Assembly: GCF_028994805.1 (NCBI RefSeq)
Contig: NZ_JAJQQP010000008.1
Location: 1-64,000 of the forward strand
Reading direction: 5' to 3'
Origin: Promicromonospora iranensis
GTDB taxonomy: Bacteria > Actinomycetota > Actinomycetes > Actinomycetales > Cellulomonadaceae
DNA length: 64,000 nucleotides
Positions 3,197-34,392 of the stretch are shown one piece after another. A program made the position numbers and the translations under genes. Position 1 is the stretch's first letter. Each line of letters opens with the position of its first letter. The notes under the pieces were generated by a model. That model was not told the DNA's origin, searched no databases, and worked only from the letters and a program-made list of their open reading frames with translations.

Positions 3197-3283
3197 GGTA
3201 GCGTGTCCGAGCGGCCTAAGGAGCACGCCTCGAAAGCGTGTGTGGGTGAAAGTCCACCGTGGGTTCAAATCCCACCGCTACCG
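3197..3283 (+). tRNA. tRNA-Ser (anticodon CGA)
   Basis: An 87-base gene with acceptor stem GGTAGCG/CGCTACC and a G discriminator. The anticodon stem is CACGC/GCGTG with loop CTCGAAA (anticodon CGA). It has a long variable arm as expected for a class II serine tRNA and the T-loop GTTCAAA. The 3' CCA is not encoded. Its 3' end is the integration site of the genomic island that follows. Confidence 0.95.
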
Positions 3284-3340
3284 CACCCCGAAGGCCCTCA
3301 ACCGCAGAATCATGCGGATCTGGGGGCCTTCGTCATGCCG
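3268..3340. repeat. att repeat 1: tRNA-Ser 3' end plus hairpin
   Basis: The 3' end of the tRNA (21 bases at 3268-3288) recurs identically at 9056-9076. A longer 70-base version (3271-3340), including a hairpin with arms AAGGCCC and GGGGGCCTT, recurs at 10352-10420. This is the tRNA-proximal attachment site (attL) of the island; the hairpin also serves as terminator for the leftward integrase remnant. Confidence 0.8.
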
Positions 3341-3350
3341 CGCCGTCCAT

Positions 3351-3686
3351 TTACCGTCCGAATTGGCTTTCCGGGGCTTCGTCGGCCTCCGCCTGTTGGA
3401 CGAGCTGATCGATGACGATCCGGAGGTCCGGCGCGATGTGCGTCCGCCTCACATAGTGCCGCAGGGTAGTTCCCTCGTCAGCGTGACCGAGGAGCGCCGT
3501 CGCGTTCCCGACCGTGGTCTGATTCGCTACCTGCGTCGCGATCGTTCGACGGAAGTCGTGCGGTGTCACCGTGATGCCCGTTCCCTCGCGAGCATGGCGC
3601 AATTGCTCACGAACTCGACCGGGGGAGCGGGGCGTTGCCTCCGTCGACGGGAACACAAGTTGATCCGTCGCGTGAACATCACTGGC
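3351..3686 (-). pseudogene. Tyrosine integrase, C-terminal fragment (copy A)
   Basis: Only the last ~112 residues of a phage/ICE-type tyrosine recombinase remain. They hold the catalytic HDFRRT box (H-x-x-R), the LLGHADEGTT box and the nucleophile-bearing segment LRHYVRR. Homology runs from DVHATDQLVFPST and stops at about 3686, where it abuts the truncated GntR fragment on the other strand. The N-terminal arm-binding and core domains are missing, so it cannot work alone. Its position next to the tRNA-Ser att site is typical of an integrated element. The only in-frame start is a GTG inside the fragment (3656). Confidence 0.85.
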
Positions 3687-3693
3687 CCGGCGC

Positions 3694-4041
3694 GAGAACT
3701 GGTACTACGCCGACGAGGTCCCGATGCAGGTCGGCATCACGTACATCCCATGGTCGATCGCCAAGGGGACGGCCCTCGCGAAGGCCGAAAACCTCGGTGC
3801 GCGAAGCCTGTACGGGCGACTCGAAGACCTCGGTTACACCATCGACAACATCCGCGAAGAAATCACTGCGCGGCCGGCCACCCGGGAAGAAGCCGAAGGG
3901 CTCGACCTACCACCAGGCGTGCCCATGATCGACCTGTGGCACACCGGCATGACCTCCGACAAGCAGCCGTTCGAAGTCACGAACTTCTGCATGCGCGCCG
4001 ACTACTCAGCACTCGACTACGACATGCCCGTGGACTACTGA
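3694..4041 (+). pseudogene. GntR/HutC-type regulator, C-terminal UTRA fragment
   Basis: The reading frame from 3694 encodes ENWYYADEVPMQVGITYIPW and onward, matching the C-terminal part of the UTRA effector-binding domain of HutC-type GntR regulators. The DNA-binding winged helix and first part of UTRA are absent, because the sequence switches to the integrase remnant 8 bases upstream. An internal ATG (3724) could still give a 105-residue piece, but without DNA-binding capacity. Its TGA overlaps the ATG of the next gene (ATGA), so it was once translationally coupled to the acetyltransferase. Confidence 0.75.
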
Positions 4042-4565
4042 TGACCCACACAATCCGCCCACGCCACGACGAAGACCTGCCCGACCTCGCCGCCGTACTG
4101 GTCCGCGTGCACGCCCAGGACGGCTACCCCGTCGAAGGCGTGGCCGACCCCGAAGGCTGGCTACGCCACCCCAACGAGCTGCAGAGCTGGACCGCCGTCG
4201 AGGATGATCGACCCATCGGGCAGATCACCCTCACGCGTGCCGTGCCCGAGGACGACGCTGCCCGAGTCTGGCAGGAGCACACCGGCGGTGACATCGACCG
4301 CCTGGCTATTCCCGTGCGCCTGTTTGTCGACCCTGACTACCGGGGAAGCGGCGCCGGCCGGCTCTTGATGGAAGCTGCACTGGACTTGGCGCGGTCTCAA
4401 GGGCTCGCGATCGCGTTCGACGTCATGCTCAAGGACCGCACGGCGATCCGGCTCTATGAACGACTCGGAGCCGTCTACATTGCTGACCTCAACCACCGCT
4501 ACGGTGACGGACTCACCGAACCGGCCGCCGTCTACGTGGTCTCCCACAATGAGTCTTCCAACTGA
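4041..4565 (+). CDS. GNAT-family N-acetyltransferase
   Basis: A 174-residue acetyl-CoA-dependent acyltransferase. The GNAT fold is recognisable: motif A appears as VRLFVDPDYRGSGAGRLLMEAA (acetyl-CoA pyrophosphate loop R-G-x-G-x-G variant RGSGAGR, about residues 100-112) and motif B as FDVMLKDRTAIRLYERLGAV. The substrate is unknown. The start ATG overlaps the stop of the GntR fragment, the usual GntR-GNAT pairing seen in actinobacterial mobile elements. Since the partner is truncated, its original regulation is probably lost. It lies inside the tRNA-Ser island. Confidence 0.88.
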   Translation: MTHTIRPRHDEDLPDLAAVLVRVHAQDGYPVEGVADPEGWLRHPNELQSWTAVEDDRPIGQITLTRAVPEDDAARVWQEHTGGDIDRLAIPVRLFVDPDYRGSGAGRLLMEAALDLARSQGLAIAFDVMLKDRTAIRLYERLGAVYIADLNHRYGDGLTEPAAVYVVSHNESSN

Positions 4566-4639
4566 CAACTGACTCGCTGACGGCGTCAGGCCGGTCGCAA
4601 TACGGAGACGGCAGCGCGGTTCAATGTTCGCCTGGAGCG

Positions 4640-5329
4640 TCATGTCATCGTGTACGGCCCCGCACTGCTCAGAAGCGTTCGCATTCGTTTCCGAACAGTG
4701 CTACGTGCCTGCGGATCGAGCAATTGCGATCGCAGCCGACCGCCAACTTGGGTTGGATCGTCTAGCCATTGATCTACCCGGGTGAGGGCGGTGTCGGAGG
4801 GCCAGCCTTCCATGACGAGATGGTCAACGGCCTCCATCGTCAGGTCGGCTTCTTCATGCTGGGGTGCAACCTGCCGATGGATAGTGATCGTCGGCACGAC
4901 AACTCTGCTGTTGTGGTAGATCCATCGTTGCACAAGGAGATTGACGCCAATCTCGCTCAGTACCGCAATCCGTTGTGAGGACAGCAACTCGTCCCGATTG
5001 AGGACCAGCAGGTCGGTAAACTGAATTCCATAATTCTTGCCGTCCTCCAGGGTTGGAAGGTACGCCCTCTTGAAGTCTCCACTCGCCCAGTCAGTGCGAA
5101 TCTGGATCGGGCTAGGCGAGAGGCCGCAAGCGAGGACCCTTTCCACCAGCTGCGTTCCCTGCCGCATCGCGCATGGGTGCTGTACGAGGCATGCCTTGCT
5201 CCCGTCATCCAAACGGAAGACGTCACCAGTAAACAGCGGGCGATTGGCCATTAACTCGGCATCCTCTTCGCCGAGGGCTTCGTACACAGAATCCAGTGTT
5301 GTCGGAGTTTCTAGCCGATACTCCGTCAC
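4640..5329 (-). CDS. Unknown protein, third gene of island operon
   Basis: A 229-residue protein of unrecognised family with no signal peptide or membrane segment. The N-terminal half carries a GDVFRLDDGSKACLVQHPCAMR segment, which reads like a beta-barrel strand pair with conserved H, C and R. The C-terminal half is helical with WIYHNSRVVVP near the middle. Its ATG overlaps the stop of the HTH gene upstream by 4 bases, so it is the last cistron of a three-gene operon. Codon use is less G/C-biased than the chromosome around it, which points to recent transfer. A toxin or effector role is only an inference from operon architecture. Confidence 0.72.
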   Translation of the reverse strand: MTEYRLETPTTLDSVYEALGEEDAELMANRPLFTGDVFRLDDGSKACLVQHPCAMRQGTQLVERVLACGLSPSPIQIRTDWASGDFKRAYLPTLEDGKNYGIQFTDLLVLNRDELLSSQRIAVLSEIGVNLLVQRWIYHNSRVVVPTITIHRQVAPQHEEADLTMEAVDHLVMEGWPSDTALTRVDQWLDDPTQVGGRLRSQLLDPQARSTVRKRMRTLLSSAGPYTMT

Positions 5330-5973
5330 TGAGAAGCCTTCGGGCGAATTGACAAGATCCCATCAGCGTCAACGAAAGTCTCAAAGTTGTCATCGACGAG
5401 GATCTCCCGCCAGTTCTCATCGAACTTGTCGAGAATCGCGTCGACCCCCATCATGCCTTCATTTGCGACAGAAAGCATCACTAGGTCGTAACGCCCTGCG
5501 ATTAGCATGTCCATCCTGCTCAGCGACACGCCTTCCTTCAAGGGAATCTCTAGCCAGGATGCGATTTCCATTACGCTGTGGTCGCCAAGTATCTCCGTCA
5601 GGGCAACCACTTTCGCCAGAGCTGCGTGGTTCGTCGCGGCCACGCCAGACCCTCTGCGCCATTTTTGCACGGCGGGCACCGAGACGCCGGCGAGCCGCGC
5701 GATGTCGCGCCACGAAAATCCCAGATCGTTCAGATAGTCGAGAAGGTCACGTGGCGCCAGCTTCTGGCGTTGAGCCTGTCTGCGCTCGAGGTCATCGCTG
5801 AAGGCCCGACGCTGGATCTGATCGGTGCCGTCTACAAGCCAGCCCAGCTCATATCGCAACACGGATGCGTCCGAAGCGAGAACACTTGTAGTACGAGGAA
5901 TGTGAACAAGCTTGTCGACGACGCTATCTTGACCAGTTGACTCGATTGAAGGAACACGAGTATCAGTGACCAC
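5326..5973 (-). CDS. HTH protein with Xre/ParS-antitoxin-like tail
   Basis: A 215-residue protein. A helix-turn-helix lies at about residues 85-110 (FSWRDIARLAGVSVPAVQKW). It is followed by a helical segment with MEIASWLEIPLKEG and DMLIAGRYDLVM, which resembles the C-terminal toxin-binding region of Xre/MbcA/ParS (DUF2384-like) antitoxins. The first 80 residues are of unknown fold. Expected role: DNA-binding autoregulator of its operon and possibly the neutralising partner of a neighbour. It overlaps the upstream gene by 11 bases and the downstream gene by 4. A sampled 60-base stretch (5341-5400) is 50% G+C, far below the chromosome. Confidence 0.75.
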   Translation of the reverse strand: MVTDTRVPSIESTGQDSVVDKLVHIPRTTSVLASDASVLRYELGWLVDGTDQIQRRAFSDDLERRQAQRQKLAPRDLLDYLNDLGFSWRDIARLAGVSVPAVQKWRRGSGVAATNHAALAKVVALTEILGDHSVMEIASWLEIPLKEGVSLSRMDMLIAGRYDLVMLSVANEGMMGVDAILDKFDENWREILVDDNFETFVDADGILSIRPKASQ

Positions 5974-6772
5974 CGAACACCTCTCTTCTAACTTTGTCCG
6001 TGAGGGTGGACTCGAATAATGCCGTCACGTCTGTGTGAATCCTGTCCGCCGCCTTAAGTATCGTCGGACCATCGAACTCTGGTGTCCCGGTAGGCGTCCA
6101 TGCCGCATCCGTATCTAGCAAGAAGTAGTGTCCGGGAGCTGGTGGCTTAGGTCGCACATCGGCGGTGATAGAAGGCGGACCGTTGACCGCGCCATACCGC
6201 AACGTGAGTGTGTCATCGTCACGATCGGTCGAGTACTGGACGATGGCTTGTTGCTGCTCAACTTGAAGGCTCATCCCCCCAGGCATTGGCGCAATCACCT
6301 GAGGATCGAGGTACTTAGACCAGTTTGGCGTCTCCTGCTTGGAGGCCGGGAGGCGAATCTCATCGACATATCTCAGCCCCAAGCGATTCACTCCATCCGG
6401 TCGACCTGCTTCGATCCTTGCCTCGGTAACCCGCTCGAGCAGGGATCGGAACGAATCCCACCCGTCGTATGTCGCGGTCTCTAGAGAGTAGGACTCAGGC
6501 CCGGCTGTGAACAGGGTGAGACCGTCCCGGGAGCCAAAGGCGTCAACCCGCACCTTGTTTGTGGTTGCGATCGGCGTCGCCCCAGGGTTGTGGGGGTTGA
6601 CAGCGAAGCTGACGCTGCCGCGCTCGATCTGCCGATGCAGCGGCAACACGTCGGCGAGCTTGGTCTTAACTGCGGTGACCTGGTCGTCTGACAACGGAGG
6701 CACCTTGAGGTGCCGCACCTCCGCCAACACCACGACTAGGGGCGGCTTCGCGTACTTCATCGGAGGCGGCAT
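5963..6772 (-). CDS. TIGR04255-family protein, first gene of island operon
   Basis: About 269 residues from the chosen ATG. Features of the TIGR04255 family are the opening YAKPPLVVVLAEVRH strand, the central VNRLGLRYVDEIRLP strand and the late TDVTALFESTLTDKVRREVFG helix. Family members occur sporadically in bacteria and I know of no established function. The frame is open upstream to 6898, but similarity begins at MPPPMKYAKPP, so I start at 6772; 6760 is also possible and no clear ribosome-binding site decides. It overlaps the HTH gene downstream by 11 bases. It heads the three-gene operon and has the same lower-GC composition. Confidence 0.75.
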   Translation of the reverse strand: MPPPMKYAKPPLVVVLAEVRHLKVPPLSDDQVTAVKTKLADVLPLHRQIERGSVSFAVNPHNPGATPIATTNKVRVDAFGSRDGLTLFTAGPESYSLETATYDGWDSFRSLLERVTEARIEAGRPDGVNRLGLRYVDEIRLPASKQETPNWSKYLDPQVIAPMPGGMSLQVEQQQAIVQYSTDRDDDTLTLRYGAVNGPPSITADVRPKPPAPGHYFLLDTDAAWTPTGTPEFDGPTILKAADRIHTDVTALFESTLTDKVRREVFGGH

Positions 6773-6990
6773 GTTACTGATGATACTGAAACAGCAACCA
6801 GTGCAGATACCCCAACACGGAACAGTCTGGGGTGAGACTCGCTGGCAACGGATAGCGGATGCACCAAGAAGTAGCGGTTTGGTGAAACCTCCGGCCAACG
6901 CTCATCCGGTTCGAAGCAGCGGCGACCGGTCTGGGCCCCCACGTGGCGCACGGCGATCGCTGCCGAGTTGACCTCTATGAGATCAAGGCG

Positions 6991-7115
6991 CGCCTGACGG
7001 CGCGCGGCCGTGCGGCCGGCAGGGGGCCCGCGAGGTGGGGCCCCGCGCTCCGCTCGCTGACGCTCGCTGTGCGCACCCCACCCCGCACCCCTGACGGCCT
7101 ACCGGCCCAACCCTG
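6991..7115. repeat. GC-rich dispersed repeat, copy 1
   Basis: A 125-base segment related to 9273-9392. Shared blocks include CAAGGCGCG, GGGGCCCGCGA, TGGGGCCCCGCGCTCCG, GCGCACCCCACC and CGACGGCCTACCGG or close variants. It lies between the three-gene operon and the HEPN-like gene; the second copy adjoins integrase remnant B. This looks like a repeated non-coding element of the genome that marks recombination joints in the island. Confidence 0.6.
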
Positions 7116-7138
7116 ACGGCGCACCCTACGATGCGGCC

Positions 7139-7720
7139 ATGGCGTCCTCCGGAAAACCGACGAAGGCAATGCTGGCTGCAATCGGTCGCGTCGCAGCCGA
7201 GAGCGCAGCCGTCGAGGATCAACTGCGAGACCTGTTCTGCCACCTCATCGGCTCTCCTTACGGACGAGTGATCACCGCTGGTGAAGACCTCTCGAACATC
7301 ACCAAGTCCTGCCTGCGCATCGCGCGTTATCACCACGGACTCACCGATGAGCAGATCGAGCAGCTTGTCACCATCGTCAAGGCCATCGAGCGCCTCCGGC
7401 CCCACCGAAACTTCTTGGTCCATGCGACGTGGGTCAAGATGAGCGAACCAGGAAAGCACTTCGGCACCAGAAGCAGTAGGGCATCGTCATCGATGCGAAC
7501 CGAAGCCCAGGGCATGTATGACTCCCTGATCTGGCGGCCAGCGGACGCTGAGAAAATCGCGGACGCGTTCAGCAACGTCGCCGTGCGGATCGACGCCTTC
7601 ATCGAGCAGGCGTTCGACCGACCGGCATACGAGCCACCGATAGAACGGGAAGCCTGGGCGAAGTTCAACGCCATGCTCTCACCGGCGTTCGATGTTCTGG
7701 ACGCTCCGGTCGACTCGTAG
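7139..7720 (+). CDS. HEPN-like hypothetical protein
   Basis: A 193-residue, mostly helical protein with no membrane segment. The segment RPHRNFLVHATW (about residues 83-94) fits the R-N-x-x-x-H signature of HEPN domains, many of which are RNases in toxin-antitoxin and abortive-infection systems. Helices before it (AAVEDQLRDLFCHLIG and DEQIEQLVTIVKAIERL) suit the HEPN helical bundle. Non-catalytic HEPN-like proteins also carry this pattern, so activity is uncertain. It stands alone, without an adjacent nucleotidyltransferase partner. The ATG follows the GC-rich repeat and has no good ribosome-binding site. Confidence 0.65.
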   Translation: MASSGKPTKAMLAAIGRVAAESAAVEDQLRDLFCHLIGSPYGRVITAGEDLSNITKSCLRIARYHHGLTDEQIEQLVTIVKAIERLRPHRNFLVHATWVKMSEPGKHFGTRSSRASSSMRTEAQGMYDSLIWRPADAEKIADAFSNVAVRIDAFIEQAFDRPAYEPPIEREAWAKFNAMLSPAFDVLDAPVDS

Positions 7721-7739
7721 CCACATGCCTCGGTCTCAT

Positions 7740-7779
7740 GCCTCCGGCGGGCACCGCGGGAATCAAGAGGATCGAGGGA
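7740..7779. repeat. 40-base dispersed repeat, copy 1
   Basis: GCCTCCGGCGGGCACC followed by GGGAATCAAGAGGATCGAGGGA, differing from 9461-9499 by one inserted base. It abuts the nested-palindrome element on its right. Confidence 0.75.
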
Positions 7780-7787
7780 GCCGCGGT

Positions 7788-7975
7788 GTCCCTGATCCTC
7801 CGTCATCCATTGGCTTGACCGGGACCCTGACAGCGAACCCGCCGGCAGTGCAACAGGTCCCGCCGACCAGGAGCACCACCGCATCATGAGCTGGACGGGC
7901 GGGACCTGTTGCACTGCCAGCAGAACCGATGTCCGAGACGTGCCCCGCGCCAACGGATGACGGAGGATCAGGGAC
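7788..7975. mobile_element. Nested inverted-repeat element (MITE-like), 188 bp
   Basis: Two nested pairs of inverted repeats without a coding gene. The outer arms are 26 bp (7788-7813 with 7950-7975, one mismatch); the inner arms are 21 bp and perfect (7844-7864 with 7898-7918). The structure could be a miniature inverted-repeat transposable element or a large folded RNA. The sequence to its right (GAGGATCAGGGACCCCGAA) resembles the continuation of the 9461 repeat, so it may have inserted into an older copy of that repeat. No transposase is nearby. Confidence 0.55.
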
Positions 7976-8014
7976 CCCGAACCAGGCCTGTGGCTGGGAG
8001 CAAGACCCGCCGGG

Positions 8015-8464
8015 TTAGAGAGGCGGCCATGCACTGGTTCGCGTCCGCAACTGCTCCCTAGCTGCATCGAAATCCTCAAGTGCAAGGGCTAGTTCCCGGA
8101 CATCTCGAGGGTCCGTCCACTTCGAGTGCTTGTAGGAGATTGTTCCCTCATCTGCAAAAGAACCTGCCGGGGCGGGATGGTGCACCACATCAGCGTGGTG
8201 TGCCCAAACCTCCAGGCCGACACCGATTTTTGCGTTCTCCTTTAGGTGGTCCCACTCGACCTCGTCGCGCGGCTGATTCCCCAGCGCAGCCACAGCGACC
8301 GAGGGCGCTGAGTCCAGAAGCATCTGGTAGGCGACAACCATGGCGCCTTCGACGTAGGCCTTCTTCGGAACTAGTGCAAGAGGCGTTCCAATCTCGACGC
8401 CGTGCAAGATCCGAGGGGTGATGTGGTCCTGCCATGTGATGACCCACGCTGTGTATCGCTTCAC
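8015..8464 (-). CDS. Hypothetical protein, 149 aa
   Basis: Soluble protein of unrecognised family, rich in His and Trp (for example WITWQDHITPR and AHHADVVHHPAP). The frame is open upstream to 8566, but GGGAGGT sits 7 bases before the GTG at 8464, which decides the start. The region LENAKIG/VGLEVW to HHP may hold a metal site, but nothing proves it. It shares direction with the small gene 66 bases upstream (8530-8787), so they may be co-transcribed. It lies inside the tRNA-Ser island. Confidence 0.65.
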   Translation of the reverse strand: MKRYTAWVITWQDHITPRILHGVEIGTPLALVPKKAYVEGAMVVAYQMLLDSAPSVAVAALGNQPRDEVEWDHLKENAKIGVGLEVWAHHADVVHHPAPAGSFADEGTISYKHSKWTDPRDVRELALALEDFDAAREQLRTRTSAWPPL

Positions 8465-8529
8465 GGTTATACCTCCCGCTCGGTCGACGTCCGGCCCGAT
8501 CGTGCCGGCTACCTGCTCGTGTATGTGTG

Positions 8530-8787
8530 CTAGTCGTTCTCGAGGATGTCGGCGGCTCGCTTCCATGTCGTGATGACGCGCCGTGTGCGCAGTTCGATGA
8601 GCTGCCCAGGCTCCGGCGTCGGCCGGCCGTGCTCGACGTGTGCCCGTAGAACCATCAGCGCCGAAGCATCATCGGACGCTGCGGTCCGGTCGTGGGCCGT
8701 GAAAGTACTGCTCCGGCCGTCGTCGGGCGTAGGTGGGATCGGGGTGATTGCGTGGGTGGGCTCCATGCCCTCGACGCTAGGTCGCAT
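8530..8787 (-). CDS. Small hypothetical protein, 85 aa
   Basis: Short protein with a Pro/Thr/Asp-rich first half and a charged helical end (LRAHVEHG, then PGQLIELRTRRVITTWKRAADILE). No family is recognised. The start is uncertain: ATG at 8787, or the second ATG at 8766, which has a GAGGG only one base away. It precedes the 149-residue gene on the same strand. The 268 bases between it and att repeat 2 contain no gene that I can support. Confidence 0.45.
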   Translation of the reverse strand: MRPSVEGMEPTHAITPIPPTPDDGRSSTFTAHDRTAASDDASALMVLRAHVEHGRPTPEPGQLIELRTRRVITTWKRAADILEND

Positions 8788-9055
8788 GACGGCACCAGGC
8801 TCGCCGGAGAAGGGTGAACTGCCGTCGACGCAGCGAGGATGTCAGCGTTGGATACGGAGCCTTGATCGATCCGAGTAGCGTGGCAGGGACCGAACGAGCT
8901 GTACCCGAACGGACCAGGATGCCTCCGTTTTCGCTCCGGTTTGCTGTCGGTCCCGGTGCTAACTCATCCAAGCCGGTCGAGGTGCGGTGAGGGTATCTCC
9001 GCAGGTCATCCGGGTTGTGTCGTTCCACGTGCAACGCCGTACAAGTGCCCTCTCC

Positions 9056-9076
9056 AATCCCACCGCTACCGCACCC
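9056..9076. repeat. att repeat 2: tRNA-Ser 3' end copy
   Basis: AATCCCACCGCTACCGCACCC, 21 bases identical to 3268-3288 at the tRNA-Ser 3' end. It lies next to integrase remnant B, exactly as att repeat 1 lies next to remnant A, and marks the joint between two tandem island modules. Confidence 0.8.
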
Positions 9077-9088
9077 TGAGTGCAAGAC

Positions 9089-9126
9089 ACGGCCCCTGAC
9101 CTGCATGTTTGCTGGTCGGGGGCCGT
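9089..9126 (-). terminator. Hairpin beside att repeat 2
   Basis: A 13-bp stem with one mismatch (9089-9101 with 9114-9126). It is placed like the hairpins next to att repeats 1 and 3 and is oriented to end leftward transcription from the integrase remnant. Confidence 0.55.
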
Positions 9127-9127
9127 T

Positions 9128-9271
9128 GTCGTCCCCGGGATCCATCACTTCCATGACATTCGAGTCGGGGGAGTCGCTGGCGGGCTGGTTGACCAGCAGG
9201 TCCGGGACCACCCGGACATCGGGCGCAACGTGCGTCCGCTTCACGTAGTGCCGCAGGGTCGTGGCCTCCGT
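9128..9271 (-). pseudogene. Tyrosine integrase, C-terminal fragment (copy B)
   Basis: The minus-strand frame reads TEATTLRHYVKRTHVAPDVRVV and onward, clearly homologous to the end of integrase remnant A (EGTTLRHYVRRTHIAPDLRIV). Only the segment with the catalytic tyrosine (RHY) remains. It breaks off at 9271, where the GC-rich dispersed repeat begins, and the frame continues past the expected stop. It belonged to a second, related element that used the same tRNA-Ser att site. Confidence 0.75.
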
Positions 9272-9272
9272 C

Positions 9273-9392
9273 AAGGCGCGGCTCCGCCGCGCTGGGCCGT
9301 CCGGCCGGCGGGGGCCCGCGATGGGGCCCCGCGCTCCGGGCACTTCGCGCCCTGCGCGCACCCCACCGCACCCCGACGGCCTACCGGCTCCC
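9273..9392. repeat. GC-rich dispersed repeat, copy 2
   Basis: Counterpart of 6991-7115. It directly adjoins the broken end of integrase remnant B. The following bases (about 9399-9441) form an imperfect hairpin with arms GAAGACGGTC and GACCGTCT, a probable terminator. Confidence 0.6.
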
Positions 9393-9460
9393 AGGCATGA
9401 CGAAGACGGTCCCGACTCCAATAGTCGAGACCGTCTCTTCATGTTCAGCTCTCAGGCAGT

Positions 9461-9499
9461 GCCTCCGGCGGGCACCCGGGAATCAAGAGGATCGAGGGA
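9461..9499. repeat. 40-base dispersed repeat, copy 2
   Basis: Same sequence as 7740-7779 with one base less. It lies just upstream of the toxin-antitoxin control region. Confidence 0.75.
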
Positions 9500-9521
9500 C
9501 CCCGAAGCGGGAGAATGGTGG

Positions 9522-9560
9522 CAGAGGTACCCATACGGGGGCCAGAGGACCCATACGGGG
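9522..9560. promoter_or_regulatory. Tandem direct repeats upstream of toxin-antitoxin operon
   Basis: Two head-to-tail copies of CAGAGG(T)ACCCATACGGGG, at 9522-9540 and 9543-9560. Placed just before the antitoxin promoter, they look like a repeated operator. Confidence 0.5.
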
Positions 9561-9570
9561 TTCACAGGGG

Positions 9571-9600
9571 TCATGAAATCTGTCATTGTAGATGTCATGA
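9571..9600. promoter_or_regulatory. 30-bp imperfect palindrome over antitoxin start
   Basis: TCATGA at both ends with ATCT/AGAT inside; 11 of 15 base pairs match. It covers the antitoxin start codon and probable -10 region, as expected for a toxin-antitoxin autoregulatory operator. Confidence 0.55.
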
Positions 9601-9863
9601 GTGAGACAACTACCATCACCATTGCACGCGCCACGAGGCAGCGGCTCGCCCACGTCAAGTTCAACGGCAAGCCGCTCAAGACGGCGGACGAGACCGTGGC
9701 TGCCCTCATCGAGGAGCACGAGCGCCGCCAGTTCTGGGAAGCGATGGACGCCATCGACCCTGACGAGTACGAGGCCCAGACCCGTGAAGAGGGCGCCTGG
9801 CCGACCGAGGGTGAGTACGCCGCCGAAGAGCAGATGATCCGTGCCCAGGAGACCACCGCGTGA
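9597..9863 (+). CDS. Antitoxin of MazF-type toxin-antitoxin pair
   Basis: An 88-residue acidic protein. The N-terminal part (SETTTITIARATRQRLAHVKFNG) fits a short ribbon-helix-helix DNA-binding domain. The C-terminal part is strongly acidic and probably unfolded (EHERRQFWEAMDAIDPDEYEAQ), as in antitoxins that wrap around their toxin. The gene overlaps the MazF/PemK gene by 4 bases (GTGA). I start at 9597 (MSETTT), where similarity to antitoxins begins; an in-frame ATG at 9572 would add 8 residues. Two repeats and a palindrome upstream indicate autoregulation. Confidence 0.78.
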   Translation: MSETTTITIARATRQRLAHVKFNGKPLKTADETVAALIEEHERRQFWEAMDAIDPDEYEAQTREEGAWPTEGEYAAEEQMIRAQETTA

Positions 9864-10171
9864 TCGTTCAGCGCGGCGATGTGATCTGGCTGTCCATGGA
9901 CCCCACCGTTGGTCGCGAGCAGGCCCACCACCGGCCGCACCTGGTCTTGTCGAATACTCGTCAGCACCGGGCTATGCGGCTGGCGATCGTGGTTCCGATG
10001 ACCTCCACTGACAAGTCCTGGCCGACCCGCGTCGAGGTGGCACCCGGCTCCTACGCGATCTGCGAGCAGCCCCGCACCGTCTCCCTGGAACGCGTCACCC
10101 GACACGACCCCACAGGGCACGACACGACCGCCGTCGCCGCCATCCTCCACACTCTGATCGACCCCTCCTAG
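9860..10171 (+). CDS. MazF/PemK-family toxin (endoribonuclease)
   Basis: A 103-residue protein with the MazF/PemK barrel. It opens QRGDVIWLSMDPTVGREQAHHRPHLVLSN (family RGDI/V..v...P..G.E....RP.lVls), and the TSTDKSWPTRVEV strand carries the usual S/T-D residues. Expected activity: sequence-specific mRNA cleavage inhibiting growth unless bound by the upstream antitoxin. It starts with GTG overlapping the antitoxin stop. The pair is the only cargo of the second island module. The 180 bases after it up to att repeat 3 hold no gene that I can support. Confidence 0.88.
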   Translation: MIVQRGDVIWLSMDPTVGREQAHHRPHLVLSNTRQHRAMRLAIVVPMTSTDKSWPTRVEVAPGSYAICEQPRTVSLERVTRHDPTGHDTTAVAAILHTLIDPS

Positions 10172-30528: not shown

Positions 30529-31146
30529 GTGACCGAGACCGCAGCCAAGCCCGTCGTCGACGTCTACGTCGACCCCATGTGCCCGTACGCCTGGATCACG
30601 TCGCGCTGGGCCCTCGAGGTGGCCCGGATCCGCGACGTCGAGCTCACCTTCAAGCTCATGAGCCTGTACCTGCTGAACAAGGACAGGGACATCGACGACG
30701 ACTACCGGGCGCGCATCGAGCGGTCGCGCGGCATCGGCCGCATCGCCGCGGCGGTCCAGACGGACCACGGCCCCGAGGCGTTCTCCGCGTTCTACACCGC
30801 GGCCGGCACCCGGATCCACGACCAGCAGAACAAGGACTTCGACGCCGTGGCCGTCGAGGCCCTCGCCGAGGCGGGGCTGCCCGCCGCCCTCGCCGAGGTG
30901 GCCACGTCCACCGACCACGACGCGGCGCTCGCGGCCTCCCACAAGTCCGGCATGAAGCCCGTCGGCGACGACGTCGGCACGCCCACGATCCACGTCGACG
31001 GCGTCGCGTTCTTCGGCCCCGTGCTCACGCGCATCCCGCGCGGCGAGGAGGCGGGTGCGCTGTTCGACGCCTCCGTGACGCTCGCGCGCTACCCGTACTT
31101 CTACGAGATCAAGCGCTCGCGCACCACGGATCCTGTCTTCGACTGA
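30529..31146 (+). CDS. DsbA-fold, mycothiol-dependent nitroreductase-like protein
   Basis: A 205-residue thioredoxin-superfamily protein of the DsbA/FrnE type. The active-site region is VDPMCPYAWITSRW, a single-cysteine CPYA motif; a helical insertion follows, then the cis-Pro strand GTPTIHVDGVAFFGP. This arrangement matches actinobacterial Rv2466c-type proteins, which reduce nitro compounds with mycothiol. TAGTCT lies 7 bases before the GTG, a leaderless promoter, which decides the start. It stands just upstream of the LLM oxidoreductase gene but has its own promoter. Confidence 0.82.
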   Translation: MTETAAKPVVDVYVDPMCPYAWITSRWALEVARIRDVELTFKLMSLYLLNKDRDIDDDYRARIERSRGIGRIAAAVQTDHGPEAFSAFYTAAGTRIHDQQNKDFDAVAVEALAEAGLPAALAEVATSTDHDAALAASHKSGMKPVGDDVGTPTIHVDGVAFFGPVLTRIPRGEEAGALFDASVTLARYPYFYEIKRSRTTDPVFD

Positions 31147-31186: not shown

Positions 31187-32116
31187 ATGACTCTCGACCT
31201 GCGTATCTTCACCGAGCCCCAGCAGGGCGCGACCTACGACGACCAGCTCGCCGTCGCCCGGACGACCGAGCAGCTCGGGTTCAGCGCGTTCTTCCGCTCC
31301 GACCACTACCTGGCCATGGGTGGCGGCGACGGTCTGCCCGGCCCCACCGACTCCTGGGTCACGCTCGCCGGCCTCGCCCGCGACACGTCCACGGTGCGCC
31401 TGGGCACCCTGGTGTCCTCGGCGACGTTCCGGCACCCCGGCGTCCTCGCGATCCAGGTGGCGCAGGTGGACCAGATGTCCGGCGGGCGGGTGGAGCTCGG
31501 CCTCGGCACCGGGTGGTTCGAGGCCGAGCACAAGGCCTACGGCATCCCGTTCCCGGACAAGCGGTTCGGCATCCTCGAGGAGCAGCTCGCGATCGTCACC
31601 GGCCTGTGGGGCACCCCGGTCGGCGAGACGTTCTCCTTCTCCGGCGAGCACTACGAGCTCGTCGACTCCCCGGCGCTGCCGAAGCCCGCCCAGTCCAGGA
31701 TCCCGGTGCTCGTCGGCGGTGGCGGCCCGCGCCGGACACCCGCCCTCGCGGCGAGGTACGGCGACGAGTACAACCAGGCCTTCCCGGAGATCGACACGAT
31801 CGGCCCACGGATCGAGGTCATCAACAAGGCCCTGGCCGACGCCGGTCGCGCGCCCGGGTCGATCGTCCAGTCGGTCGCGCTGGTCGCCGCCGTCGGCCAG
31901 GACGAGGCCGAGTTCACCCGGCGTGCCGCGGCGATCGGGCGTGAGCCCGCCGAGCTGCGCGAGCACGGCATCGCCGGCACCGTGGCCGAGGTCGTGGACC
32001 GGCTCAAGGCCCTGGAGGCTGTGGGCGTCGAGCGGGTCTACCTGCAGGTCCTCGACCTGGCAGACCTGGACCACCTCGACCTGGTCGCGCGCGAGGTGCG
32101 TCCGCAGCTCGGCTGA
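31187..32116 (+). CDS. LLM-class (luciferase-like, F420-dependent) oxidoreductase
   Basis: A 309-residue TIM-barrel oxidoreductase that probably uses F420H2. Motifs are the start LRIFTEPQQGATYDDQL, FRSDHYL, GTLVSSATFRHPGVLA, QMSGGRVELGLGTGWFEAEH (a hallmark of the LLM family) and the late IPVLVGGGGPR. F420 rather than FMN is inferred from similarity to actinobacterial LLM proteins. GGTGAGGGC precedes the ATG. It is 40 bases after the DsbA-like gene, so limited co-transcription is possible. Confidence 0.88.
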   Translation: MTLDLRIFTEPQQGATYDDQLAVARTTEQLGFSAFFRSDHYLAMGGGDGLPGPTDSWVTLAGLARDTSTVRLGTLVSSATFRHPGVLAIQVAQVDQMSGGRVELGLGTGWFEAEHKAYGIPFPDKRFGILEEQLAIVTGLWGTPVGETFSFSGEHYELVDSPALPKPAQSRIPVLVGGGGPRRTPALAARYGDEYNQAFPEIDTIGPRIEVINKALADAGRAPGSIVQSVALVAAVGQDEAEFTRRAAAIGREPAELREHGIAGTVAEVVDRLKALEAVGVERVYLQVLDLADLDHLDLVAREVRPQLG

Positions 32117-32200
32117 GCCACAGCCAGCGCAGGCCGTGTGGAGAAATCTTTCCTATGGTCGTCCCGGCCGTCCTTGCCGCGACACACATCGGAGAACTCC

Positions 32201-33064
32201 ATGCAGAGCTTTTCTCGTGCCGTCCGAGCCGCTCTGGCGGCGACCGCGCTCGTCGCCGGAACCTTGGTGGCGGTCCCCGCCGCTGCCGCCGACGACGGCT
32301 ACCAGCGCGGGCCCGACCCGACGGTGGAGAGCATCACGGCTCCCCGGGGAACGTTCGAGATCCGCGCGGCCGTCGTCACGCGTGCCGCCGCCGAGGGATA
32401 CGGCGGCGGCACCGTGTACTACCCGACCGACACCTCCGAGGGCACCTTCGGAGCGGTGGCGATCTCCCCCGGCTACCGCTCCTCGCAGGCGGCGATCGCG
32501 TGGCTCGGCCCGCGACTGGCCTCCCAGGGCTTCGTCGTCCTCACCATCGACACCCTCCGACCCGCCGACTCGCCCACCCGGCGTGGCGCACAGCTCCTCG
32601 CCGCCCTGGAGCAGCTGCAGGAGAGCACCCTGGCGGATCGCATCGATCCCGACCGGCTCGCCGTGATGGGGCACTCGATGGGCGGAGGCGGCAGCCTGGA
32701 GGCCGCCAAGGACGATCCTGCGCTGCGAGCGGTCATCCCGATGACCCCGTGGAGCCCGGACAGGACCTTCCCCGAGGTCACTGCCCCGACCCTGGTCATC
32801 GGCGCCGAGGACGACGCCGTCGCCCGGGTCCGGTCGTACGCCGAGCCGATCTACGAGTCGCTGCCCGCCGACGGGGACAAGGCGTACCTGGAGCTGCGGG
32901 ATGCCTCACACTCCGCGCCGAGCAGCCCCAGCACGACGATCGCCAGGTACAGCCTGTCCTGGCTGAAGCGCTACGTCGACGACGACGAGCGGTACACGCA
33001 GTTCCTCTGCCCGGCGCCGGTCGGCGACCCCGAGCTCAGCGAGGTCCGCAGTACCTGCGACTAA
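32201..33064 (+). CDS. Secreted polyester hydrolase (cutinase/PET-hydrolase family)
   Basis: A 287-residue secreted alpha/beta hydrolase. The signal peptide is residues 1-30 (VRAALAATALVAGTLVAVPAAAA). The mature part follows the Thermobifida cutinase/PET-hydrolase pattern throughout: GPDPTVESI, GYGGGTVYYPTD, AVAISPGY (oxyanion Y92), VMGHSMGGGG (nucleophile S159, oxyanion M160), TPW (W184), GAEDDAVA (D205), DASHSAP (H237), and the C-terminal disulfide C270-C286. The residue after the catalytic His is Ser (Phe in typical cutinases, Ser in Ideonella PETase), and I217 matches the PETase Ile at that site, while H158 is cutinase-like. GGAGAA upstream fixes the ATG. Natural substrate: cutin or similar polyesters. 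Confidence 0.92.
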   Translation: MQSFSRAVRAALAATALVAGTLVAVPAAAADDGYQRGPDPTVESITAPRGTFEIRAAVVTRAAAEGYGGGTVYYPTDTSEGTFGAVAISPGYRSSQAAIAWLGPRLASQGFVVLTIDTLRPADSPTRRGAQLLAALEQLQESTLADRIDPDRLAVMGHSMGGGGSLEAAKDDPALRAVIPMTPWSPDRTFPEVTAPTLVIGAEDDAVARVRSYAEPIYESLPADGDKAYLELRDASHSAPSSPSTTIARYSLSWLKRYVDDDERYTQFLCPAPVGDPELSEVRSTCD

Positions 33065-33105: not shown

Positions 33106-34392
33106 ATGCGAATCGGCTGGCAGCTGCACGGTGACGGCACACGCATCACCCCCGGTGAGGTCGTCGCCCCCGACGAGCGGCTCAGCTGGCCGCGCACCAT
33201 CGGGATCGGCCTGCAGCACATCGTCGCGATGTTCGGTGCCACGTTCCTGGTGCCGACCATCACGGAGTTCGACCCGGGAACCACGCTGTTCTTCTCGGCG
33301 GTCGGCACGATCACCTTCCTGCTCGTCACGGGCAACAAGCTGCCGAGCTACCTGGGCTCGAGCTTCGCCTTCATCGCGCCGATCCTGGCGGCCACGGCGT
33401 CGAGCGGGCAGTCGGCCGCGATCGGCGGCATCCTTGCCAGCGGCCTGCTCCTGGCGCTCGTCGGCGTGGTGGTGCACTTCGCCGGGCCGCGCTGGATCCA
33501 GGTGGCGATGCCGCCCGTCGTCACGGGCGTGATCGTGGCACTGATCGGCCTGAACCTCGCGCCGGTCGCCTGGGGAACGTGCGACGAGGAGGGGTGCTCG
33601 GGCTTCCAGGCCTCCCCGGTGACGGCCGTGATCACCCTGGCCTCGATCATCCTGATCCAGGTTCTGTTCCGCGGCCTCGTCGGCCGGCTCTCGATCCTGC
33701 TCGGCGTCGTCATCGGGTACGCCGTCGCCACGCTGCGCGGCGAGGTCGACTTCTCGAAGGTCGGTCAGGCGGACTGGGTGGGCCTGCCGCAGTTCGTGGC
33801 GCCGTCGTTCGACCCGGGCGTGCTCGGCCTGTTCCTGCCGGTCGTGCTCGTGCTCGTCGCGGAGAACGTCGGACACGTGAAGTCGGTGGCCGCGATGACC
33901 GGCCGCAACTACGACCCGCTGACCGGCCGGGCGCTCCTGGCCGACGGCATCGCCACGACCCTCGCAGGCCTCGGCGGCGGCTCCGGCACCACGACGTACG
34001 CCGAGAACATCGGTGTCATGGCGGCGTCCCGGGTGTACTCGACGGCGGCGTACTGGGTGGCCGCGTTCGGTGCGCTGGTGCTCAGCCTGTCGCCCAAGTT
34101 CGGCGCGCTGATCGCCAGCGTCCCCGACGGTGTGCTCGGCGGTGTCACGACCATGCTCTACGGCATGATCGGCATCCTGGGCGCCCGCATCTGGGTGCAG
34201 GGCAAGGTCAACTTCTCGGACCCGGTCAACCTGACGACGGCGGCCGTGCCGCTCGTGATCGGCATCGCCGACTTCACCTGGACCGCCGGTGACCTGCAGT
34301 TCGGCGGTATCGCCCTCGGTACCGCCGCCGCCCTCGTGATCTACCACGTGATGGGGGCCATCGGCCGCTGGCGCGGCACCGCCGAGGGCTGA
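33106..34392 (+). CDS. NCS2-family uracil/xanthine permease
   Basis: A 428-residue membrane transporter of the NCS2 (SLC23) family with about 12-14 hydrophobic segments, importing uracil or xanthine with protons. Signatures are LQHIVAMFGATFLVP in TM1, GSSFAFIAPI in TM3, PVVLVLVAENVGHVKSV in TM8 (the substrate-contacting Glu) and the TM10 loop GGGSGTTTYAENIGVMA. The NIGV form and the loop are closest to UraA-type uracil permeases. AAGGACAGG precedes the ATG. A hairpin follows the stop. Confidence 0.92.
   Translation: MRIGWQLHGDGTRITPGEVVAPDERLSWPRTIGIGLQHIVAMFGATFLVPTITEFDPGTTLFFSAVGTITFLLVTGNKLPSYLGSSFAFIAPILAATASSGQSAAIGGILASGLLLALVGVVVHFAGPRWIQVAMPPVVTGVIVALIGLNLAPVAWGTCDEEGCSGFQASPVTAVITLASIILIQVLFRGLVGRLSILLGVVIGYAVATLRGEVDFSKVGQADWVGLPQFVAPSFDPGVLGLFLPVVLVLVAENVGHVKSVAAMTGRNYDPLTGRALLADGIATTLAGLGGGSGTTTYAENIGVMAASRVYSTAAYWVAAFGALVLSLSPKFGALIASVPDGVLGGVTTMLYGMIGILGARIWVQGKVNFSDPVNLTTAAVPLVIGIADFTWTAGDLQFGGIALGTAAALVIYHVMGAIGRWRGTAEG

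What the first reader, a model, noticed from the sequence alone, without database searches (positions are those of the whole stretch)
32201..33064. PET-hydrolase-family secreted esterase with mixed cutinase/PETase active-site residues
The protein follows the type I polyester hydrolase pattern along its whole length (GHSMGGGG, TPW, GAEDDAVA, DASHSAP, terminal disulfide). Position 238, after the catalytic His, is Ser as in Ideonella PETase rather than the Phe of Thermobifida cutinases, and Ile217 matches PETase, while His158 is cutinase-like. Tyr213 stands at the PETase Ser214/cutinase His184 site, an unusual choice. The second PETase disulfide is absent. The combination may give a distinct binding cleft.
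Basis: partly seen in the sequence, partly recalled or inferred. Interest (0 to 1): 0.72.

Follow-up and report, generated by a model that had tools for sequence, protein, structure and literature searches.

The report
Polyester hydrolase with remodelled binding cleft
A soil-type actinobacterium carries a probably secreted enzyme of the plastic-degrading PET-hydrolase family whose binding groove has naturally changed at several of the positions that engineers change to improve such enzymes; the family is well known, but this combination was seen only in this strain and one close relative among those surveyed, and what the enzyme digests is untested.

Summary
The gene is real: 32201-33064 (+), 287 aa, intact Ser159-Asp205-His237 triad, Pfam PETase (PF12740) 350 bits, AlphaFold2 model 0.7 A from PHL7. 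It is a type I (cutinase-like) enzyme with a type IIb-like Ser238. Ser238 alone is not rare (14 of 209 surveyed sequences). Tyr213 nearly is: 2 of 164 relatives at 50% identity or more, this gene and its Promicromonospora iranensis orthologue, the only ones of 209 with Tyr/Ile/Ser. The gene belongs to a Promicromonospora-specific syntenic paralogue (10 of 13 genus genomes); a canonical copy (64% identical) lies elsewhere in the genome. Departures from conserved residues concentrate in the substrate subsites (9 of 16 columns against 19 of 141 others, p=0.0003); the canonical copy shows no such excess. Also changed: Ser124, Arg93, Ala98, Ser241. dN/dS of 0.20-0.41 indicates a maintained enzyme. 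Best reading: a mesophilic secreted carboxylesterase with an opened, more polar cleft. Natural substrate and PET activity are untested.

The parts
32201..33064 (+). PETase-family (PF12740) alpha/beta-hydrolase, 287 aa, probably secreted
32201..32290 (+). probable Sec signal peptide, residues 1-30 (basic start, hydrophobic core, Ala-rich end)
   Evidence: read from the sequence; residues 1-31 have pLDDT under 50; cleavage site not computed
32191..32194 (+). GGAG, likely ribosome-binding site for the ATG at 32201
   Evidence: read by eye
32474..32494 (+). Tyr92 (clamp/oxyanion), Arg93, Ser94 to Ala98: edge of subsite II; Thr->Arg at 93 and Ser->Ala at 98 are unusual
32564..32575 (+). Ala122-Asp123-Ser124-Pro125: Ser124 at IsPETase Gln119 / LCC Tyr127
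32672..32680 (+). His158-Ser159-Met160: type I His, nucleophile Ser, oxyanion Met
32750..32752 (+). Trp184, aromatic clamp (IsPETase Trp185)
32813..32815 (+). Asp205, catalytic
32837..32839 (+). Tyr213 (IsPETase Ser214, TfCut2 His184, LCC His218)
32849..32851 (+). Ile217 (IsPETase Ile218, TfCut2 Phe188, LCC Phe222)
32909..32914 (+). His237 catalytic and Ser238 (IsPETase Ser238, TfCut2 Phe209, LCC Phe243)
33008..33058 (+). Cys270 to Cys286, terminal disulfide
31187..32116 (+). upstream syntenic neighbour, F420-type LLM oxidoreductase
33106..34392 (+). downstream syntenic neighbour, xanthine/uracil permease family (PF00860)

Best explanation
It is a secreted serine carboxylester hydrolase of the PETase/type I cutinase family. 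Ser159, activated by His237 and Asp205, attacks an ester carbonyl held at the Tyr92/Met160 oxyanion hole and between the Tyr92/Trp184 aromatic clamp (inferred from alignment and model). It is a genus-specific paralogue whose binding subsites, not its catalytic machinery, have been remodelled. Ser238, Ile217, Ser124, Ala98 and Ala122 replace larger or conserved residues and should open the cleft and loosen the packing behind the clamp Trp; Tyr213 replaces the His beside that Trp; Arg93 makes subsite II more polar. I infer a mesophilic enzyme for aliphatic plant or microbial polyesters or their oligomers (cutin- or suberin-like) or lipids, with a different preference from the canonical copy and at most incidental PET activity. 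Shown: family, intact triad, equivalences, rarity in the survey, synteny, concentration of changes in subsites, purifying selection. Inferred: secretion, open cleft, substrate.
For: Pfam PETase 350 bits; model pLDDT 90.4, rmsd 0.7 A to PHL7, 0.8 A to S. exfoliatus lipase, 1.1 A to TfCut2 4cg1. The ten Promicromonospora sequences form one clade (SH-aLRT 99), at the same place between the LLM oxidoreductase and the permease in the 10 of 13 genus genomes that have it, absent there in 3. Subsite concentration: 9 of 16 conserved subsite columns changed against 19 of 141 others, p=2.6e-4 (near-relative background); 9 of 15 against 16 of 132, p=7.6e-5 (all non-clade background); canonical paralogue 1 of 16 and 1 of 141. 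At least 3 of the 4 hot spots (119, 214, 218, 238) changed in 7 of 164 near relatives, all 7 in this clade. dN/dS 0.20-0.41 in seven pairs within the clade. The canonical copy of the same genome scores 423 bits on the same Pfam model.
Against: No activity data. dN/dS in the clade (0.20-0.41) overlaps the canonical pairs (0.15-0.29 in three pairs within the genus, 0.38 for one pair across genera), so neither adaptation nor relaxation is shown. 16-19 conserved columns outside the subsites changed too. With columns at least 90% conserved the excess was 2 of 6 against 4 of 76, p=0.06, and for clade-wide changes 0 of 6 against 1 of 76. In the whole survey 22 of 209 sequences change at least 3 of the 4 hot spots; 15 of these are distant paralogues, so remodelling here is not unique to this lineage. 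No neighbouring gene points to a substrate.
Confidence: 0.72

Rival explanations
1. Relaxed constraint: this copy is losing the specialised cleft by drift and keeps only a generic esterase function.
For: Across six other named genus loci the target is 67-84% identical while the LLM neighbour is 88-91%; position 238 is Ser or Asp and 218 is Ile, Met or Phe within the clade, and one member (L011) has Phe at the clamp Trp; absent at the locus in 3 of 13 genomes.
Against: All ten copies keep the triad, Met160 and the terminal cysteines; no stop inside the matched frames; dN/dS 0.20-0.41; changes are concentrated in subsites; in 8 of the 10 genomes that have it no second copy was found at E 1e-30, so it is not simply redundant there.
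Confidence: 0.2
2. Natural PET hydrolase of the improved type: the Tyr/Ile/Ser set gives appreciable PET depolymerisation, as in engineered LCC-A2 (H218Y) or TurboPETase (H218S/F222I/F243T).
For: Passages: Tyr at this site helps LCC-ICCG (H218Y) and PHL7 R4M10 (H185Y, 17-35% more activity); Ser/Ile raised TfCut2 and LCC activity up to 60 C, and L210T at the 238 site raised PHL7 activity.
Against: The effects depend on context: H185S lowered PHL7 stability and activity, and F189I lowered stability with no gain at 50 C (passages). The query also has Arg93, Ser124 and Ser241, not part of those designs; the genus is recalled as mesophilic soil bacteria, and PET is not a natural substrate.
Confidence: 0.12
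3. Neutral variation: an ordinary type I cutinase with no changed specificity.
For: Fold, clamp and triad are canonical; single changes such as Ser238 occur elsewhere (14 of 209); at 90% conservation the subsite excess is not significant.
Against: Four hot spots plus Arg93, Ala98 and Ser241 changed together, while the canonical copy keeps nearly all conserved residues.
Confidence: 0.2

Closest known systems
PHL7 / PES-H1 (type I polyester hydrolase)
   Same: fold (0.7 A), 58.6% identity, His158, one disulfide, short loop, a residue other than Phe at the 238 site (Leu in PHL7)
   Different: PHL7 has His185/Phe189/Leu210/Gln95/Thr64; the query has Tyr213/Ile217/Ser238/Ser124/Arg93
Thermobifida fusca cutinase TfCut2 and LCC (type I)
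   Same: type I layout; 53.3% and 48.8% identity
   Different: both have His/Phe/Phe at the three sites
Ideonella sakaiensis PETase (type IIb)
   Same: Ile at 218, Ser at 238
   Different: 43.8% identity; Trp159, Ser214, second disulfide and extended loop are absent in the query; on the tree the two lie far apart, so the shared residues look convergent
Canonical Promicromonospora paralogue (own genome G000:C2:83972-84826, minus strand, L002)
   Same: 64% identity, same genome, beside the clade in the tree
   Different: keeps His/Phe/Phe, Gln119, Thr88 and Asn241 equivalents; 423 bits against 350 on PF12740
Engineered LCC-A2, TurboPETase, PHL7 R4M10-H185Y
   Same: Tyr (or Ser) at the His site; Ile at the Phe222 site and Thr at Phe243 in TurboPETase (passages)
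   Different: engineered, thermostable backgrounds; the query is natural and differs at many other sites

Membership tests
PETase family PF12740 | profile score over curated cut-off (28 bits), full length | tested here: met
   350.3 bits, residues 29-286, profile 2-262 of 263
PETase family PF12740 | Ser-Asp-His triad and oxyanion Tyr/Met with clamp Trp | tested here: met
   Ser159, Asp205, His237, Tyr92, Met160, Trp184
Type I PET hydrolase (Joo et al. scheme as given in PMC11219463, passages) | one disulfide, no extended beta8-alpha6 loop | tested here: met
   C270/C286 only, A202/A239; loop as short as in TfCut2
Type I PET hydrolase (Joo et al. scheme as given in PMC11219463, passages) | His and Phe in subsite II (LCC His164, Phe243) | tested here: not met
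   His158 present, but Ser238 in place of Phe; the review records PHL7 (Leu) as an exception within type I
Type IIb PET hydrolase (IsPETase type) | Trp and Ser/Thr in subsite II, second disulfide, extended loop | tested here: not met
   Ser238 only; no Trp, disulfide or loop
NCBIfam NF051441 BdeA (BHET hydrolase) | score over equivalog cut-off 520 bits | tested here: not met
   419.9 bits
PET hydrolase (function) | measured PET depolymerisation | not testable with these tools
   needs expression and assay

The most novel reading that the evidence does not exclude
A Promicromonospora paralogue lineage has been remodelled by selection at the same subsite positions that PET-hydrolase engineers target (LCC 127, 218, 222, 243), stepwise (238 first, then 218, then 214), giving an active enzyme with an open, Arg-lined cleft and a substrate preference not described for the family.
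Probability: 0.3. Interest if true: 0.6.

Novelty: new variant of a known kind. Interest (0 to 1): 0.42.

Why it matters
The His/Phe pair behind the clamp Trp is described as strictly conserved outside IsPETase (PMC10080609, passages), and replacing it is a main handle in PET-hydrolase engineering. A natural lineage that departs from it in steps, with a canonical copy in the same genome as control, lets one test what these positions do in evolution rather than in design: which step changes stability, which changes substrate, and whether Tyr is tolerated without a thermostable background.

Tried and rejected
Rejected: an IsPETase-like origin (43.8% identity; the clade lies beside the canonical Promicromonospora copies, in a fork of support 89 that also holds one Sciscionella sequence). 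Rejected: Ser238 as a PETase signature (14 of 209). Rejected: Tyr at 214 as unique in the whole family; it is in 15 of 209, the other 13 being below 50% identity, and 11 of those 13 have the clamp Trp replaced by Gly, Tyr or Phe. A test whether both genus paralogues form one clade did not reject it (p-AU 0.749; the held tree was 29 lnL units better than the quick free tree, so the quick tree is not optimal). Rooting and deep branches are unsure; long-branch rows were flagged. Fewest changes on that tree: 5 for Tyr214, 5 for Ile218, 6 for Ser238. The promoter/terminator scan gave no site at the gene. The phylum search matched 9 of 396 genomes, all met in earlier searches. 'Faster-evolving than its neighbours' holds for the LLM oxidoreductase and the permease only: the downstream TetR and ABC genes are as variable or more so in several species. 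Literature: 'Promicromonospora' with 'PETase' 0 papers, with 'cutinase' 1, with 'polyester' 7; no listed title or abstract start concerns such an enzyme (listings only, open-access library only).

The structure alignment used the query and 39 of the 79 loci. The first subsite test used a background filtered for His at 214 and an aromatic at 185, which makes those columns conserved by construction, and 17 of the review's 20 positions; it was repeated without the filter and with all 20. dN/dS was taken over reading frames that include the signal peptide and a few codons before the ATG. Clade members are not independent of each other.

Full report
The observation. The reading frame 32201-33064 on the plus strand encodes 287 residues, starts with a Sec-type leader read by eye, and is preceded by GGAG at 32191-32194. 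Pfam PETase (PF12740) covers residues 29-286 with 350 bits. 175 distinct PDB sequences match at E up to 1e-10, of which the best 60 were listed; ancestral PETases and PHL7 lead. The NCBIfam BHET-hydrolase model scores 419.9 bits, under its cut-off of 520.

Equivalent positions. Aligned with IsPETase, TfCut2, LCC and PHL7/PES-H1, the triad is Ser159/Asp205/His237, with Tyr92, Met160 and Trp184 at the oxyanion hole and clamp. His158 is cutinase-like. Tyr213 stands at IsPETase Ser214 = TfCut2 His184 = LCC His218; Ile217 at Ile218 = Phe188 = Phe222; Ser238 at Ser238 = Phe209 = Phe243. The second disulfide (Cys203-Cys239) is Ala202/Ala239 and the extended loop is missing. Further unusual residues: Arg93 for Thr, Ser94 for Ala, Ala98 for Ser, Ala122 (Tyr, Leu, Ser or Phe in most), Ser124 for Gln (Tyr127 in LCC), Ser241 for Asn. 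The three near relatives with Arg at 93, all in this clade, have Ala at 98. The Glu203/Arg233 pair (IsPETase 204/233), like the salt bridge engineered into PHL7 (passage), is common (31 of 164 near relatives) and so not special.

Where it comes from. The nearest named relatives are Promicromonospora iranensis (94%) and P. panici (84%). The window's genome has 5.84 Mb in 31 contigs and holds a second, canonical family member at C2:83972-84826, 64% identical, which scores higher on PF12740 (423 against 350 bits). In the genus 11 of 13 genomes have a family member at E 1e-30. Ten have the divergent copy, in all ten between the F420-type LLM oxidoreductase and the xanthine/uracil permease; G002 has LLM and permease side by side without it, and G003 and G004 have LLM without it. 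In each of six named loci other than P. iranensis the target is less conserved than the LLM gene and the permease (67-84% against 88-91% and 85-89%), though the TetR and ABC genes further downstream are as variable or more so in several. Between this genome and the P. iranensis-like G012, the divergent copies are 94.2% and the canonical copies 97.0% identical. The ten divergent copies form one clade (SH-aLRT 99). Reading the tree, Phe238 was lost on the stem (Ser, later Asp in four), Ile217 is shared with P. panici, and Tyr213 is confined to this strain and P. iranensis; this order is my reading, not a computed reconstruction.

How unusual. Among 209 distinct natural sequences, drawn, Tyr at 214 occurs in 15; of the 164 with at least 50% identity to the query (query included) 2 have it. 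The other 13 are distant paralogues, 11 of which have also lost the clamp Trp. Tyr214 with Ile218 occurs in 4 of 209, with Ser238 as well in 2 of 209; His159 with Ser238 in 14 of 209. Phe at 218 is itself not strictly kept: 139 of 164 near relatives. Of positions 119, 214, 218 and 238, at least three depart from Gln/His/Phe/Phe in 7 of 164 near relatives, all in this clade, and in 22 of 209 overall, the other 15 being distant.

Is the change focused on the cleft? Using the subsite list in the table of PMC11219463 (passages), columns conserved at 70% or more in near relatives outside the clade are changed in the query at 9 of 16 subsite and 19 of 141 other positions (p=2.6e-4); with all non-clade sequences as background, 9 of 15 and 16 of 132 (p=7.6e-5). 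The four other clade members tested show the same tendency (p 0.008-0.052 in the near background at 70%); the canonical paralogue does not (1 of 16, 1 of 141), nor do the four other controls. In an earlier form of the test at 90% conservation the excess was not significant (2 of 6 against 4 of 76, p=0.06), and changes shared by at least 8 of the 10 clade members gave p=0.04 at 70%, p=0.008 at 80% and no excess at 90%. dN/dS is 0.20-0.41 in seven divergent pairs, 0.15-0.29 in three canonical pairs within the genus and 0.38 in one canonical pair across genera: purifying selection throughout, so the protein is maintained; a burst of adaptation is not proven.

Structure. AlphaFold2 on a 40-row alignment gives pLDDT 90.4 and pTM 0.86, with only residues 1-31 listed as a disordered segment. 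Foldseek finds PHL7 at 0.7 A, Streptomyces exfoliatus lipase at 0.8 A and TfCut2 (4cg1) at 1.1 A; IsPETase was not among the 50 rows shown. The model's coordinates were not among the files open to scripts, so side-chain geometry was not measured.

How it probably works. The chemistry is that of the family. Published work (passages only) says that His and Phe at 214/218 restrain the clamp Trp and support thermal stability and that Ser/Ile frees it (PMC10080609; PMC10076380), that Tyr there helps LCC-ICCG and PHL7 R4M10 (PMC11219463, PMC13179365, PMC12371127), and that L210T at the 238 site raises PHL7 activity (PMC10076380). The query combines a Tyr, an Ile and a Ser with a small Ser124 and a charged Arg93. 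I expect an open, polar cleft and modest stability. A cutin- or suberin-like polyester, its oligomers or lipids are the likely substrates; this is inference from the family and from a soil habit that is recalled, not shown.

Verdict. It remains a variant inside a very well studied enzyme family, with no activity data.

Noticed in passing
window 3197-10150: Stretch of lower G+C (59.6-64.4% at 4001-10000) beside tRNA-Ser(cga) at 3197-3284; of nine minus-strand ORFs scanned there, eight have no Pfam match and one has weak helix-turn-helix hits below cut-off: perhaps an integrated element.
   Followed up: partly
L229-L232, L234, L236 (other actinobacterial genomes): Six distant PETase-family paralogues with Met161->Ala and Trp185->Gly (HSAGGAG motif) and Tyr at 214: the aromatic clamp appears lost while the triad is kept.
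   Followed up: no
genomes G739 and G647: At least six family members each (six candidates per genome were scored), strongly diverged from one another.
   Followed up: no
L076, PKRH01000083.1: A MAG titled Thermoanaerobacterales holds a gene almost identical to PHL7/PES-H1 among mostly actinobacterial sequences; its binning or name may be wrong.
   Followed up: no
window 30529-31146: Rv2466c-like mycothiol-dependent nitroreductase (PF22234) just before the LLM oxidoreductase, same place in 12 of 13 genus genomes; no match in the P. panici-like G008 locus.
   Followed up: partly
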